A stretch of DNA of 36,578 nt, from NCBI GenBank assembly GCA_021647705.1, contig JAKIUF010000044.1:1-36578 (forward strand). The letters run 5' to 3'. Below are positions 1-28,612 of this stretch, piece after piece; positions within the stretch are counted from its first letter, which is position 1, and every line of letters begins with the position of its first letter. The notes beneath the pieces are model-generated. The model ran no database searches. It was not told the DNA's origin and saw only the letters and a list, made by a program, of their open reading frames with translations. Both the position numbers and the translations under genes were made by a program. The stretch comes from Gammaproteobacteria bacterium (GTDB lineage Bacteria; Pseudomonadota; Gammaproteobacteria; SZUA-152).

Positions 1-14
1 CCCCTTTCCCATTT

Positions 15-44
15 GGTGGAACCGCTGCGCTTGTTCCACCCTAC
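15..44. repeat. REP-like palindrome, GTTCCACC subtype
   Basis: A 30-nt unit starts GGTGGAACCGCTGCG and ends GTTCCACCCTAC. Its arms GGTGGAAC and GTTCCACC pair to form a hairpin. Identical 30-nt copies occur at 14763-14792 (same orientation) and 14905-14934 (inverted). It is a subtype of the GTAGGGTGG palindrome family dispersed through this window. Confidence 0.85.
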
Positions 45-62
45 CCGGCTTATAACTTAAAT

Positions 63-360
63 ATGAATTAAGTGCTAAAAACACCGGGTATTTAATGCAG
101 AGATCGCAGAGACGCAGAGGATACAAAGTTTTTCATGTTTTTCTCTGCGTCCTTTGCGCCTCTGCGACCTCTGTGTTTATAACTCACCACTTGTCAGTAC
201 CACTTCAACATAATCTCCCAATACATCGAAACGATTGCCCAAGTGTTTACACCTCTGGATTCCGGCTAAAAATATGCCGGAATGATGGTGTTGTCAGTGA
301 CGAAAGTGCCAACAGAACGATTTGGCCCTTTAATTCATATTTAATAACATTGGAGCAAAA
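63..360. repeat. Dispersed ~300-bp element, copy A
   Basis: This stretch is a diverged copy of 28287-28612. Both begin with TGAATTAAG(T/C)GCTAAAAA, contain a block close to TTTGCGCCTCTGCG, then TTGTCAG, ACATAA(T/C)(C/G)TCCCAAT and a hairpin with arms ATTCCGGC and GCCGGAAT. In both places the right end stops a few bases after the stop codon of a minus-strand gene (jetB here, hisZ at the other copy). No open frame is shared between the copies, so it looks non-coding. It accounts for all of the jetB downstream region visible here. Confidence 0.75.
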
Positions 361-376
361 GCTCTCTTGATCGAAC

Positions 377-1051
377 CTATTCGGTTTCGGTGACAATGCC
401 TTCACTCTCTTTATTTTCCGACGTTGTTGCCCGGGACAACGCCTGCACAGCATCATCGTTAACAAAACTGACAATCATCGGATGAATCTTCAACCAGGCT
501 TCGCCGCTTACCAGGTCTTCTTCACTGTGAAATTCGATAAGGCGCAAACGGCGCAAATGAATAAACAACTGTTTTCGTTCCGTGAGCTTTTCCGGCAGGC
601 TACGGGCCAGGATATTTTTCATGGCAATGCTCAAGGCTTCCATGGATTCGGTGACGTAACCTTTGTCGTCTACCTGACCTTCGCGTAACGCTTTGTCATA
701 TTGCAAACGCAGCACCAGCACCATGGCTACTTCGGACTGAGACAACCGGTTGCGCAAACTGCCTGCAAAGGCCGAGATCTCCGCTTCTTCCATTCCGGGC
801 GTTTCGCTGCCCGGCGGATAAAGCCGCAGGTATTCAAAGCGCCGGTCGTGAAATACGGTGATATTCATAATATGCAGGTAATCCTGCACCAGATCAGCAA
901 TACGCAGGTAGCGGTCATAAAGCTGTTGTTCGGTCTGGCTTTCGCTCCGGCATAACACGCCATAATTGAGCAGGCGAATAGTGAGTTCACGAAACTCATC
1001 AAGACCCAGGTTTTCCTTTTCGAGTCGTTGGCTCAGTACGTCAGTCAGCAT
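377..1051 (-). CDS. jetB: JetB/MksE-like condensin subunit (DUF4194)
   Basis: A 224-residue acidic protein that reads as DUF4194, the MukE/MksE/JetB-type kite subunit of SMC-like complexes. In Wadjet and MksBEF systems it binds the kleisin (JetA/MksF) and helps the SMC motor (JetC/MksB) act on DNA, for example against plasmids. I chose the ATG at 1051 because AGGAAAAG lies just upstream and because it overlaps the jetA stop by 11 nt, as expected for coupled subunits. An upstream ATG at 1108 would overlap jetA by 68 nt. The gene after it in such operons, the SMC-like ATPase, does not follow within the remaining 376 bases, which are a dispersed repeat. The family call is from memory of the pattern, not a search. 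Confidence 0.7.
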   Translation of the reverse strand: MLTDVLSQRLEKENLGLDEFRELTIRLLNYGVLCRSESQTEQQLYDRYLRIADLVQDYLHIMNITVFHDRRFEYLRLYPPGSETPGMEEAEISAFAGSLRNRLSQSEVAMVLVLRLQYDKALREGQVDDKGYVTESMEALSIAMKNILARSLPEKLTERKQLFIHLRRLRLIEFHSEEDLVSGEAWLKIHPMIVSFVNDDAVQALSRATTSENKESEGIVTETE

Positions 1052-2507
1052 GATTCTTTTCCTGGAAATGTTCCTGAGTGTGTTCCACCAGCTCGATGAT
1101 GAAATCATCGGTCATTTCATAATAATCCGTTTGCACTTGCTGGCCGGTAGGCTCTACACGAAAATAAAATTCGCTGGAGCGACGCCCCGCAGCACCTGCT
1201 TCAATGGCATGGGCAGCCATCAACAGGTCACGGGCATTTTGCACCGGTAACTGCTTGCTGTGAATACGATGGCCGTTTTTAAGTGCGGCAACAATAAACT
1301 GCCCTACCTGCTGGTTGTTAACCACAAAAGCCTTTTGCAGTGACTGCTGGATAAACAGCTCGCGACGCGAAGCTTTGTCCATGGGTGTCTGCACCTCGAC
1401 AGAACTGTTAACCAGCCGCCGCTGCCGCCCGGCATGCAGTCGCAATGCGCCGGGGTCAGTCACACCGAGGTCAAGTGTAGCCATGGCATCGGCCACAGCA
1501 TCCAGCGCCTGTGGTTGTTTTTCCTTCGGCAACGCGCCCAGTTGCTGACAGAGATTGAGCAGATCACCCTGTTCACCACCCAGAGTGTAACTGAGCTGGC
1601 GAATGATGATATCAGCACGGCGGGTGAAGCTGTGCAGGGCATTGCGCAGCGCGGGCAGCATGATGTCACTGGCACTGTGAATGCGTGACTCGATACTGTC
1701 GAGAATGAAATAATAAAGTGAAGCCTGTTTGTCCTGTAATAATTCCGGTGCTAGCTTGCGTAATTCAATCTCGGCACCGGTCTTGAATTTTTTCTGTTTG
1801 CGTTTGGCCTTACGCAACAGTGACTCAATTTCATCACGGTATTTTTCTACGCTGTCTGCCGAGAGGCGCACGGAAAGATCCGGCATGAAACGCTTTTCCA
1901 TAAAATCGAAAAATTCGTCACTGGCCTGCTGGACGACCTGTTGAGCCTCTACTTCCCGTACCAGCATGCGTTTACGCTCATCCAGCTCAGCAATCACATC
2001 GCTGAAGTCGCTGATAATGCGTTCCGAGTATTCGTAGGCATCGAGCAGGTCATACACTTCGCCACGCTCAAGAAAGGAGTGCAGGGCATTGCGAGTGTTA
2101 CGGGTATTGCGATGCCGGGTACGAAAACCGCCACCCGCTGTTTCCACCATGGGCTGAGTAAACAAGCGACCAATACGACTGAAGGCATAACTGCTTTGCA
2201 GAGTAGCCTCATCGGCATGGCGCTCGATCCAGCCATGCTCCAGCAGCAGATTGAGAACCCAGTTGGCCTGCTCCCGCTCGCTGCGCACTGGTGCGGAAAA
2301 ATCCTCCTCTTCCTCGTCCAGCACGGGGGTACGGGTAATGGCCTCGGTGAAGGATTCCAGCACCTGATCCCGGGTAAAGGCACGCTTGTAATCCGCCAGT
2401 GAACCATAAAGGGAGGCATGCAGAATACGCAGGCATTCCACCACCTGTTCCCGGTATTTACCGAAAAAGGGGCGGAAAAAATGGGTGCGATTATCTGTGA
2501 AAAACAT
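1041..2507 (-). CDS. jetA: JetA/MksF-like kleisin subunit (DUF5716 type)
   Basis: A 488-residue protein whose N-terminus (MFFTDNRTHFFRPF) and pairing with a DUF4194 gene fit the JetA family, a MukF/MksF-like kleisin of Wadjet or Mks condensins. Residues 1-130 look like a winged-helix region, including LLEHGWIERH. The middle (about 150-330) is long, charged and helical with a coiled-coil character, and the C-terminal part ends in a short acidic, hydrophobic stretch that would bind JetB or the SMC head. It lies upstream of and overlaps jetB, which is the usual order. The ATG at 2507 has no strong ribosome binding site. Its role in plasmid or phage defence is inferred from the family. Confidence 0.7.
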   Translation of the reverse strand: MFFTDNRTHFFRPFFGKYREQVVECLRILHASLYGSLADYKRAFTRDQVLESFTEAITRTPVLDEEEEDFSAPVRSEREQANWVLNLLLEHGWIERHADEATLQSSYAFSRIGRLFTQPMVETAGGGFRTRHRNTRNTRNALHSFLERGEVYDLLDAYEYSERIISDFSDVIAELDERKRMLVREVEAQQVVQQASDEFFDFMEKRFMPDLSVRLSADSVEKYRDEIESLLRKAKRKQKKFKTGAEIELRKLAPELLQDKQASLYYFILDSIESRIHSASDIMLPALRNALHSFTRRADIIIRQLSYTLGGEQGDLLNLCQQLGALPKEKQPQALDAVADAMATLDLGVTDPGALRLHAGRQRRLVNSSVEVQTPMDKASRRELFIQQSLQKAFVVNNQQVGQFIVAALKNGHRIHSKQLPVQNARDLLMAAHAIEAGAAGRRSSEFYFRVEPTGQQVQTDYYEMTDDFIIELVEHTQEHFQEKNHAD

Positions 2508-2586
2508 GGAGATGATTAGGGTCTAATAGCCGAGGGGCCATACTATACCGAAAACGACCCGGGTTTGGGTGAATAGTGCTTACCTC

Positions 2587-2742
2587 AATGCCATTAAGTT
2601 AACAAATTCGTAGGTTGGTGGTGAGCTTGCGAACCCCAACATTAGCGGCCCTGTTGGGGCTCGCAGCCGTAGGGTGGGCACGTAGTTTGTACCCACGCGG
2701 TGACTCTGCATTCGCGTGGGCAAAAAAACATGCCCACCCTAC
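2587..2742. repeat. Composite of two palindromic repeats
   Basis: The left part (2587-2668) begins AATGCCATTAAGTTAACA and then GTAGGTTGG with arms CCCCAAC and GTTGGGG. It matches 25001-25102, except that the last arm present there is missing here. The right part (2669-2742) is a full GTAGGGTGGGCAC...TGCCCACCCTAC palindrome of the family dispersed in the window. One repeat therefore appears to have inserted into, or replaced, the end of the other. The block lies between jetA (transcribed away from it) and the phoA-like gene (ending at it), and I see no gene in 2508-2828. Confidence 0.8.
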
Positions 2743-2828
2743 CTTTTTGTATACGTTATTGTGTTCCATTTCTTAAAGACATTGTCATTTACCCTGCCAG
2801 CCTGTTTTAACCGTTTTTCTTTTGAAAA

Positions 2829-4424
2829 TCAGTGGGGCTGCGGGATTGTCAAGCCCAGTGCTTTTTTCATCATTATCGCGATTTCTGTACTGTGATGAAT
2901 ACCATTAAATTGCCGGGTGATTGCTTCCGGCCCAAGTGCCACCACCGGAACGGGTGTGTCCGTATGCGTGCCTGTGCCCCACACTACGTTTTGGTGCCTC
3001 GACAAAATTATCCCGAGCCTGTTTTGTCGATGATTATTAAAATAAACATAAAATTCCTTAAAATCGTTCACATAAAACCCATCATCCACAGGCTGTAATA
3101 TTTCTTCTGCTTCCTCCAGGGATATTTTGAATTCAGAACTTCCATTAACAATATTCATCAAACTTTCTGCCGTTTCCTGTTCTTCAGGCAAAGCAGTAAA
3201 TTCAGATATCATGTCTGTGTAGGATTTTTTCTGCCGGTAAAGCATATCGATTATTTTTGGCGCACCAAAATTGTACTTTGGCTTAAACTTGATATCCTTA
3301 AAAGCAGAACCTTCCAGTTCTTTTGCCTTTGGAACATCAAAGTTTGAATAACTAAAACCGAATGATCCGGTTTCATGATCTGCTGTTAACACAACCAGAG
3401 TATCGCCCTTTTTCTCAGCCCATTCCATGACATACCCAATCGTTTTATCAAATTGCAACATCTGATGAAGCATTGTACCCGCATCACTGGTATGACCTGC
3501 CCAATCGATTTGGCCCGATTCAACCATCAAAAAGAATCCTTTTTTATTTCTGGACAAATGATCAAGTGCCTTGATGGTCATTTCTTTCAACGTAGGATGC
3601 TTTCTGGATTTTTGATTCTCCGTTTGATATTCACGAATACCATTAGGCATTTTTTTAGTATCAAAAAGGCCCAATAGCTTCTTGTTTTTGGGTGCTGCCA
3701 ACATTGACTTCCGATCAAACACAAGATGATAACCTTTAGCTTCAGCTTCGTTTAACAAGTTACGATCATCCGTTCTTTTGGAATTCAGCGTAATGTGTTC
3801 AGGAATTTGTTGACGAAGGTGAGCATACACTTTGCTTTCCCTATCTTCGACACCCTGCGGAAGAAACGACCGCAGACCGGCAGACAACATCACATCAACA
3901 TGATTATTTATCAAATCGGAAGCAATGTTATTTTCCATTGACCGATGAGGCTGGTGAGCGGCAAATGCAGCAGGCGTTGCGTGGGTGATACGGGTATCAG
4001 ACACCAGCCCTGTCGATTTCCCTGCATCACGCGCACGCTCCAGGATAGTCTTTTGTGGATTACCTTTATAATCCAGACCAATCATTTCTGATCCCGAATA
4101 ATGCCCCGTCGCCAGTTGCGTAGCTGATGCCGCAGAATCAACGACGAGCGCATTATGGGGATGGGTCATCATTAACCCAAGCTCGCCCCGGGACATGAAC
4201 TTTTCCAGGTTCAGCTCCCGAGTATGCGCATTGGGTGCCAGCCGGGCATATGACAGGGCTAATGCATATTGTTGAGGCCCCATGCCATCACCGATCAGGA
4301 GAATGACACTTTTGACGGTGGGATTCGCAAATACCTGTTGTGGTATAAATAAAAAAAGAAGTGAACTGAAAATGACCGAATAAATTTTTCGATAACTCGA
4401 TGGCTTGGCGCGCCTGTAATTCAT
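2829..4424 (-). CDS. Alkaline phosphatase, PhoA family, exported
   Basis: This metal-dependent phosphomonoesterase would release inorganic phosphate from organic phosphate outside the cytoplasm. The protein has 531 residues. It starts with a signal peptide (basic start, hydrophobic SVIFSSLLFLFIP, cleavage near VFA-NP). Family motifs are in order: LLIGDGMG (first metal Asp), VDSAASAT (the Ser nucleophile corresponding to Ser102 of E. coli PhoA), GQIDWAGH (metal Asp/His), TADHETGSF (Asp-His) and GTGTHTDTPVPV (metal His). I chose the ATG at 4424, preceded by AGGA and followed directly by the signal peptide. The frame is open upstream to 4568, but that part is a toxin-gene remnant and not phosphatase. 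No Pho box was recognised. Confidence 0.9.
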   Translation of the reverse strand: MNYRRAKPSSYRKIYSVIFSSLLFLFIPQQVFANPTVKSVILLIGDGMGPQQYALALSYARLAPNAHTRELNLEKFMSRGELGLMMTHPHNALVVDSAASATQLATGHYSGSEMIGLDYKGNPQKTILERARDAGKSTGLVSDTRITHATPAAFAAHQPHRSMENNIASDLINNHVDVMLSAGLRSFLPQGVEDRESKVYAHLRQQIPEHITLNSKRTDDRNLLNEAEAKGYHLVFDRKSMLAAPKNKKLLGLFDTKKMPNGIREYQTENQKSRKHPTLKEMTIKALDHLSRNKKGFFLMVESGQIDWAGHTSDAGTMLHQMLQFDKTIGYVMEWAEKKGDTLVVLTADHETGSFGFSYSNFDVPKAKELEGSAFKDIKFKPKYNFGAPKIIDMLYRQKKSYTDMISEFTALPEEQETAESLMNIVNGSSEFKISLEEAEEILQPVDDGFYVNDFKEFYVYFNNHRQNRLGIILSRHQNVVWGTGTHTDTPVPVVALGPEAITRQFNGIHHSTEIAIMMKKALGLTIPQPH

Positions 4425-4464
4425 GTGTTGTTCCTGAAAAATAAACGTGGAGGAATGCAAAACC

Positions 4465-4568
4465 GATAGAGGAAAACAAAAGGTGCCTATCTTCATCTTT
4501 TTCGATAATCTTGTCCGTCTTTTCATTCCCTTTTTGAACCCATATAAAATATCGGCATCAAAGACCAT
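4465..4568 (-). pseudogene. VapC-like PIN toxin remnant, frameshifted and truncated
   Basis: The reading frame opening at 4568 encodes MVFDADILYGFK, which matches the N-terminus of PIN-domain VapC ribonuclease toxins, including the first catalytic Asp (usually DTDILIW or DADILIW). After an AAAAA run the natural continuation GNEKTDKIIEKDEDRH lies in another frame, consistent with loss of one base. The similarity then fades around FSSI, before the remaining acidic catalytic residues. The start overlaps the antitoxin stop by 11 nt, as in intact vapBC operons. What is left is about 35 codons directly upstream of the phosphatase gene, so no active toxin is expected. Confidence 0.65.
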
Positions 4569-4794
4569 GATGAGGCTTTCTCAAGCTTTCCAGCTCTTCA
4601 AGTACTGTTGTTCCTGAATCACCTCGCACTCCAAAAAAAGGATGCTCTTTGACTTTCAATTCCGTTTTTCCTCTAGCAGGTTTTATTATGCCTTTTACTT
4701 TACCGTGATAAAGAACTGTAACACTCTCACTTCTATCAAGAGCTTTCAGAATATCATTTGTCTTATACCCCAAATCTACTATAGGTACCTTCAT
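4558..4794 (-). CDS. VapB/Phd-type antitoxin
   Basis: A 78-residue protein of the antitoxin type that pairs with PIN toxins. The N-terminal half (VPIVDLGYKTNDILKAL, then VTVLYHGKVKGIIKP) has the Phd/YefM-like DNA-binding pattern. The C-terminal EHPFFG and the following acidic, Leu/Arg-rich tail are the part that would bind the toxin. The ATG at 4794 has a good GAGGT ribosome binding site; an ATG at 4827 has none. Its partner toxin gene is only a remnant, so this is an orphan antitoxin that might still repress its own promoter. The region upstream (4795-5011) has no gene that I can support. Confidence 0.7.
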   Translation of the reverse strand: MKVPIVDLGYKTNDILKALDRSESVTVLYHGKVKGIIKPARGKTELKVKEHPFFGVRGDSGTTVLEELESLRKPHHGL

Positions 4795-5011
4795 AGCTAC
4801 CTCAGAAGCAACATGCAATATGACCACTTAATTCTATACACCTTAGATTACACATCAAGGAATATATTCCCTCCAGAGGATTCAAAAGGTTACAACTATA
4901 AAAAAATTTCGTAAACACACAAATCATCAGCATCAAGTTCGCTTGTTATACTGCACTGCAAGACCTAACCTCGATGTTTTATAAGGCGGTCAAATTGACT
5001 ACACTGTAGAA

Positions 5012-5311
5012 TTACTCTAGCTCCAAATCATCGTCGAGAAGATAATCAAATCCACTATCTTCAATGAAATTTTGTATCATCATTGATGCTTTTTCGGCCT
5101 CATATGTATTAGCTGGATGACCTAAAACAATCTTCTTCTCTTTCATATCAAGCGCACTTTGGTCACACATAGCATCAACAAAACTCAAAAGATCTTTAGC
5201 TTCCTGCTCCGACGATATTTTTTCTTTCGATAGGCTTTGACCTACTTTTGATTTTAACTCTTTAGCATAGTGGAGAATATATTTTTTTATATAATCATCA
5301 ATTTTATTCAC
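5012..5311 (-). CDS. Small acidic hypothetical protein, possible immunity or antitoxin partner
   Basis: A 99-residue protein I do not recognise. The first half is basic and helical (IKKYILHYAKELKSKVGQ), the middle is helical, and the end is strongly acidic (LLDDDLELE). It starts with GTG at 5311, and this GTG overlaps the stop of the upstream gene in a GTGA arrangement, so the two are translationally coupled. A small acidic gene placed directly after a toxin-like gene suggests an immunity or antitoxin role, but that rests on context only. AT-rich base use differs from the B12 genes and suggests transfer. Confidence 0.5.
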   Translation of the reverse strand: MNKIDDYIKKYILHYAKELKSKVGQSLSKEKISSEQEAKDLLSFVDAMCDQSALDMKEKKIVLGHPANTYEAEKASMMIQNFIEDSGFDYLLDDDLELE

Positions 5312-5729
5312 AATTCAACCTTCACAGCTCCTATTGACTCTAGAACCTTTTCAACTTTTTTAAGTTTTTTAATTAAATCAGCAGTTGACATATTCTGAGT
5401 AACAACCAGCGAAGCATGGCCAGGCCTGTCTCTTATAAATTTAAGCCCTTCGGGAAGGGGGCATGCTCATCTATCGCATAAATATCAATATCTGTATGAA
5501 ATCTAGCCTTGGATTTAATTATTGATTTGAGCTTCCTCATGTTTGTAGCAAATAAAAATCCTTTTGTTAAATCCTTATTTACTTGTGCTCTATCTTGACT
5601 GAGATTAAAGTCAACTGGCGTAATAGAATCTTCGGTAAGAGTGCTGTGACTACCTGGATCAGCAATTCTCACAAATTCCTTGAGTTCGATTATTATATGC
5701 CTAAGGTCTTCCATCGTTATTAGTTCCAT
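5308..5729 (-). pseudogene. Toxin-like hypothetical gene with a single-base frameshift
   Basis: The first frame (5729 to 5433) encodes 98 residues ending DEHAPFPKGLNL. Reading with one extra C in the CCCCC run at about 5456-5461 continues smoothly as DEHAPLPEGLKFIRDRPGHA and then SLVVTQNMSTADLIKKL, ending at 5308 with a stop that overlaps the next start. The restored protein would have about 140 residues. The LPEGL...RDRPGHASL...MS pattern reminds me of the C-terminal part of Tse2-type ADP-ribosyltransferase-like toxins, a weak resemblance by eye. The ATG at 5729 is preceded by GGAAAG. The shift may be a true mutation or a homopolymer sequencing error. Confidence 0.5.
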
Positions 5730-28286: not shown

Positions 28287-28612
28287 TGAATTAAGCGCTA
28301 AAAATATCCAAACAAATAAAATCACTGGCTTACATTCAGCGAGACGGGCCATTCCCCTGCCACGAATCACAATGTCATAAAATCTAGCGCAAAGAATGCA
28401 GCGTTTTTAGTGTTTTTTTTCTGCGTTCTTTGCGCCTCTGCGTTTGTAACACGCCATTTGTCAGGCCACGACAACATAACGTCCCAATGTGCCGAAACGC
28501 TTCTCTGGAGGTTTACTCCCCTGGAGTCCGGCTAAAAACAGGCCGGAATGACGGTGTTTTCAGTAATAATAAAGTGTTAACAGAATGATTCAGGTATTAA
28601 TTCCCACTCGTT
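28287..28612. repeat. Dispersed ~320-bp element, copy B
   Basis: This is the second copy of the element at 63-360. It shares TGAATTAAGCGCTAAAAA, TTTGCGCCTCTGCG, TTGTCAG, ACATAACGTCCCAAT and the hairpin GTCCGGCTAAAAACAGGCCGGA in the same order, with an extra block of about 70 nt near the left end. It fills the hisZ-purA gap and ends 3 nt from the hisZ stop. No gene is seen in it. Confidence 0.75.

What the first reader, a model, noticed from the sequence alone, without database searches (positions are those of the whole stretch)
377..2507. JetA-JetB pair without a visible SMC gene
The kleisin and kite genes overlap as in Wadjet/MksBEF operons, where the SMC gene (jetC/mksB) usually follows at once. 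Here the 376 nt after jetB are a dispersed element with no coding sequence. Either the element has separated jetB from jetC, or the system has lost its motor, or it uses a distant SMC.
Basis: partly seen in the sequence, partly recalled or inferred. Interest (0 to 1): 0.55.

Follow-up and report, generated by a model that had tools for sequence, protein, structure and literature searches.

The report
Wadjet operon split by contig end
The two genes are the first half of an ordinary four-gene Wadjet anti-plasmid operon; the motor and nuclease genes are intact at the end of another contig of the same genome, so nothing appears to be lost.

Summary
The jetA-jetB pair is real (PADLOC E 1.9e-216 and 3.1e-99). 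The "missing" SMC gene is an artefact of the window edge: base 1 is the end of contig C59. Contig C56 of the same genome begins with the same repeat (94 of 99 bases, inverted) and then carries, in the expected direction, an intact jetC (1223 aa, PADLOC E 0) and jetD (378 aa, E 2.9e-110). The own genome gives one match (E <= 0.001) to this JetA and one to this JetC. In the nearest relative found (L012, JetA 96%) the phosphatase gene, jetA, jetB and jetC lie on one contig with a 172-nt gap. So this is a complete type I Wadjet (MksFEBG) operon with repeats between jetB and jetC, among them a MITE-like element (57-344). JetC has its ATPase motifs and JetD its conserved acidic residues. The contig join is inferred, function untested. 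Low interest. Side results: in relatives it is the nuclease jetD, not the motor, that is variably present; the genome has a second complete Wadjet operon; and 6 of 8 near relatives examined carry 111-558 nt in the jetB-jetC gap.

The parts
1041..2507 (-). jetA (mksF), kleisin, 488 aa, intact
   Evidence: PADLOC JetA1 1.9e-216; Pfam JetA 8.8e-30
377..1108 (-). jetB (mksE), KITE, 243 aa as first-ATG ORF; probable true start at codon 20 (377-1051)
   Evidence: PADLOC JetB1 3.1e-99 over residues 22-236; Pfam DUF4194; start inferred from homologue extents
57..344 (.). dispersed, apparently non-coding MITE-like element with perfect 15-nt terminal inverted repeats (57-71/330-344), after jetB
   Evidence: inverted repeat; 61 matching stretches in own genome, 5 others spanning from 54-60 to 337-350
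1..52 (.). second dispersed hairpin repeat (GGTGGAAC...GTTCCACC) at the contig edge; with the neighbouring element end (1-99) it is shared with the edge of contig C56, where jetC (C56:545-4216) and jetD (C56:4345-5481) follow
   Evidence: the same hairpin lies in the jetB-jetC gap of L012

Best explanation
This is the 5' half (jetA, jetB) of a complete type I Wadjet/MksFEBG operon. The assembly broke in a cluster of dispersed repeats between jetB and jetC, leaving jetC and jetD at the edge of contig C56. By homology with studied Wadjet systems, kleisin JetA, KITE JetB and SMC ATPase JetC form a loop-extruding sensor of smaller circular DNA that activates the nuclease JetD to cut plasmids. Gene content, order within each contig and motifs are shown here; the contig join and the function are inferred.
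For: JetC1 (E 0) and JetD1 (2.9e-110) intact on C56 in the required orientation, jetC starting 544 nt from the contig edge. One match to this JetA and one to this JetC in the genome at E <= 0.001. Contig edges share 94 of 99 bases, inverted as needed. L012 (JetA 96%, JetB 93%, JetC 95%) has the phosphatase gene, jetA, jetB and jetC on one contig; its jetB end matches the C59 side and 71 nt across its jetC start (44 of them upstream of the ATG) match C56 at 94%. A further 94 nt of the L012 gap match C56:234-325, inverted, at 83%. L013 has A-B-C-D on one contig. In 51 loci with a readable gap, 43 have jetC within 50 nt of jetB or overlapping it (L026 left out, its jetB end holds an ambiguous codon). 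JetC has Walker A at 29, SGGQ at 1085, Walker B at about 1116. JetD E222, D297, D299 are kept in 19 of 19.
Against: No read or contig crosses the jetB-jetC gap in this genome. The shared edge repeat differs at 5 of 99 positions, so the two ends may be separate copies, and the repeats could also mark a rearrangement; part of the C56 edge matches L012 only in inverted orientation. Single-sequence searches of PDB chains found nothing for any of the four proteins and NCBIfam nothing for JetA and JetB, so family assignment rests on Pfam and PADLOC profiles.
Confidence: 0.93

Rival explanations
1. The operon is truly split: repeat-mediated rearrangement has moved jetC-jetD elsewhere in the chromosome, and the four proteins still work together in trans.
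For: Both contig edges hold repeat DNA; edge copies differ at 5 of 99 bases; a stretch of the C56 edge is inverted relative to the L012 gap.
Against: Orientation and edge positions are just what an assembly break would give; relatives keep the genes together; 44 nt just before jetC on C56 match those before jetC in L012.
Confidence: 0.05
2. JetA-JetB is an orphan remnant that lost its SMC motor.
For: Only that no SMC gene follows jetB in the window.
Against: Intact JetC of the same PADLOC type, the only match in the genome; jetA and jetB are open throughout.
Confidence: 0.01
3. JetA-JetB uses the SMC of the second Wadjet operon, on C43.
For: A second complete Wadjet I operon exists.
Against: That JetC best fits a different PADLOC model (PDLC00518) from the C56 JetC (PDLC00515) and sits in its own A-B-C-D operon.
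Confidence: 0.01

Closest known systems
Wadjet type I (JetABCD; MksFEBG of Corynebacterium glutamicum; Wadjet of P. aeruginosa PA14 and E. coli GF4-3)
   Same: Same four genes in the same order, profile matches for all four proteins, ATPase motifs in JetC and conserved acidic residues in JetD.
   Different: Repeats of about 0.8-0.9 kb (if the contigs abut) between jetB and jetC, where 43 of 51 relatives have an overlap or at most 50 nt.
MksBEF without nuclease (as described for Pseudomonas aeruginosa in PMC10586767, passages seen)
   Same: Same kleisin-KITE-SMC core.
   Different: Here jetD follows jetC, so the nuclease is present.

Membership tests
Wadjet type I | kleisin JetA gene | tested here: met
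   PADLOC JetA1 1.9e-216
Wadjet type I | KITE JetB gene following or overlapping jetA | tested here: met
   PADLOC JetB1 3.1e-99; overlapping ORFs
Wadjet type I | SMC ATPase JetC with Walker A, signature and Walker B | tested here: met
   on contig C56; adjacency to jetB inferred
Wadjet type I | jetC directly downstream of jetB in the same genome | tested here: inconclusive
   contig break; orientation, edge repeat and synteny agree, but no sequence crosses the gap
Wadjet type I | Toprim nuclease JetD with conserved acidic residues | tested here: met
   PADLOC JetD1 2.9e-110; E222, D297, D299 in 19 of 19; that these are the metal-binding residues is recalled
Wadjet type I | restricts circular plasmids | not testable with these tools
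   needs a transformation assay
MksBEF without nuclease | no JetD/MksG | tested here: not met
   jetD 128 nt after jetC on C56

The most novel reading that the evidence does not exclude
The spacers of Wadjet operons in this genus repeatedly receive and keep palindromic repeats of several kinds (jetB-jetC here and in 6 of 8 near relatives; jetA-jetB in this genome's second operon). These may uncouple translation and set the ratio of motor to kleisin-KITE, as REP elements are known to do in some operons (recalled).
Probability: 0.08. Interest if true: 0.35.

Novelty: new member of a known kind. Interest (0 to 1): 0.1.

Why it matters
Mainly as a caution: a defence-system caller that works contig by contig would probably score this operon as incomplete, although all four genes are in the assembly. 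The side result has some use: closely related Sedimenticola loci that differ by jetD while the jetABC DNA is about 95-96% alike are natural pairs for asking what the motor does without its nuclease.

Tried and rejected
Lost motor: rejected, jetC is intact on C56. Borrowed SMC from the C43 operon: rejected as unnecessary. A JetB-JetC fusion seemed present in L026; the translation shows an ambiguous codon near the end of jetB, so it is not evidence of a fusion. The first gap survey gave false gaps of about 660-870 nt in some loci, which I put down to stops met when reading from the match start; it was replaced and none of its numbers are used. The terminator scan of both contig edges found none; promoter-like sites were 3 against a shuffled mean of 0.7 (sd 0.9) in window 1-460 and 1 against 0.8 in L009 1-600; nothing is built on this. 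PDB sequence searches of the four proteins gave no hit. NCBIfam gave none for JetA and JetB.

Full report
Observation. The window is contig C59 of its genome, base 1 being the contig end. On the minus strand, ORFs 1041-2507 (488 aa) and 377-1108 (243 aa) overlap and are JetA and JetB by Pfam and PADLOC; NCBIfam has no hit. The best JetB profile match starts at residue 22 of the ORF, and 39 of 56 best matches in relatives start at residue 13 or later, so I infer that translation begins at codon 20 (377-1051). The gene before jetA, 2829-4568(-), is an alkaline phosphatase by Pfam (1.5e-83).

The 376 nt after jetB. They are repeat DNA with 61 matching stretches in the genome, a lower bound because 40 of 335 candidates were scored. 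An element at 57-344 ends in a perfect 15-nt inverted repeat, and 5 other matches span from 54-60 to 337-350. That makes it MITE-like; no transposase was sought. A separate hairpin unit fills about 1-52.

Where the motor is. JetD_C searched in the own genome gave two places, one on C56 (29.8 bits, cut-off 22) and one on C43 (172.8 bits). C56 begins with the inverted match of window 1-99 (94 of 99), then carries jetC at 545-4216 (1223 aa) and jetD at 4345-5481 (378 aa) on the plus strand. PADLOC: JetC1 E 0, JetD1 2.9e-110. Pfam over cut-off: SbcC_Walker_B, AAA_29 and SMC_hinge in JetC, JetD_C in JetD; DUF3322 in JetD is just under its cut-off. Reading the minus strand of C59 outward and then C56 gives jetA, jetB, repeats, jetC, jetD. 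The genome gives one match at E <= 0.001 to this JetA and one to this JetC. If the contigs abut, the jetB-jetC spacer is about 0.8-0.9 kb (376 + 544 nt, less up to 113 if the shared ends are one copy).

Relatives. A scan of genome contigs with JetA gave 59 loci. In L012 (JetA 96%, JetB 93%, JetC 95%) jetA-jetB-jetC lie on one contig with a 172-nt gap. Its jetB end matches the C59 side at 87%, and 71 nt across its jetC start match the C56 side at 94%. Its gap shares the hairpin with the own repeats and another 94 nt, inverted, with C56:234-325 (83%). The stretch before jetA matches the window's phosphatase region. L013 has all four genes on one contig. Of 59 loci, 52 allowed the jetB-jetC gap to be measured; 6 lacked a jetB or jetC match, and L032 was dropped because its best jetC match lacked the N-terminus. 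Leaving out L026 (an ambiguous codon near the jetB stop), 43 of 51 have a gap of 50 nt or less, one has 62, and seven exceed 100 (L012, L013, L015, L016, L018, L025, L049). In a set of 20 genomes that includes the own one, 4 have this JetA: the own and 3 of 11 others of the same genus, so the operon is patchy.

Integrity. JetC has Walker A at residue 29, SGGQ at 1085 and Walker B near 1116. Among 19 JetD proteins (the own and 18 from loci), E222, D297 and D299 are invariant; reading these as the Toprim metal-binding residues is recalled. PDB sequence searches gave nothing for any of the four.

Mechanism. By homology with Wadjet type I: JetABC acts as sensor of smaller circular DNA and triggers JetD to cut (passages seen in PMC10586767 and PMC10123090). 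Nothing here tests function.

Side result on jetD. Rows of the JetC tree: the own operon and 41 loci. From 48 loci with a near-full JetC match, 7 were left out because they have under 1150 nt after jetC and no JetD. Of the 42 rows 19 have JetD after jetC and 23 do not. Nineteen of the 23 lie on one side of a branch with support 100; the quick, midpoint-rooted tree needs at least 5 changes, and their direction (gain or loss) is not settled. An HMM from 19 JetD proteins found none at E <= 10 among 203 ORFs from the DNA after jetC in loci without a JetD match; its only positive control was its own training set. The own JetD searched in 13 genomes matched 4 of 13: the four that have jetD beside jetC; the other 9 gave none. 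Against a simple reading, JetD_C by Pfam matched 4 of 14 genomes of loci without adjacent jetD, among them those of L012 and L035, so some have another kind of JetD elsewhere. In L035 against L036 the aligned flanks are 87 nt apart in the first and 1292 nt (holding jetD) in the second; in L031 against L033, 35 nt against 3117 nt (jetD plus a partial second copy). Review PMC10586767 already proposes that P. [quoted passage not shown]

Check.

Noticed in passing
L071:8053-15121 (own genome C43): A second, complete Wadjet type I operon (JetA of DUF3375 type, B, C, D). A copy of the window 57-344 repeat family (81% over 221 nt, L071:13343-13554) lies between its jetA and jetB.
   Followed up: partly
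L035 vs L036; L031 vs L033: Closely related Sedimenticola loci with about 95-96% identical jetABC DNA, jetD present in one and absent in the other; no own-type JetD elsewhere in the L035 and L031 genomes, though L035's genome has another JetD_C match.
   Followed up: partly
jetB-jetC gaps of L012, L013, L015, L016, L018, L025: 6 of the 8 near relatives examined (not L014, L017) have 111-558 nt in this gap. L012 and L013 share pieces with the own jetB-jetC repeats; L015 and L016 share a hairpin also found elsewhere in the own operon; L018 and L025 matched none of the other gaps.
   Followed up: partly
L012:15972-16931: The nearest relative has no jetD match in the 959 nt after jetC, and its genome (G017, 73% complete) no own-type JetD, though a different JetD_C match.
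   Followed up: partly
L033:18526-18780: A second, partial JetD C-terminus downstream of the full jetD.
   Followed up: no
G025:C58:1360-2583 (L082): The jetD match holds one in-frame TAA, so the gene is possibly broken.
   Followed up: no
window 2665-2744 and L009:4221-4309: The same GTAGGGTGGGCA hairpin repeat stands upstream of jetA and between jetC and jetD.
   Followed up: partly
window 28388-28590: A second copy (74% over 213 nt) of the repeat family of 57-344 in the window.
   Followed up: no
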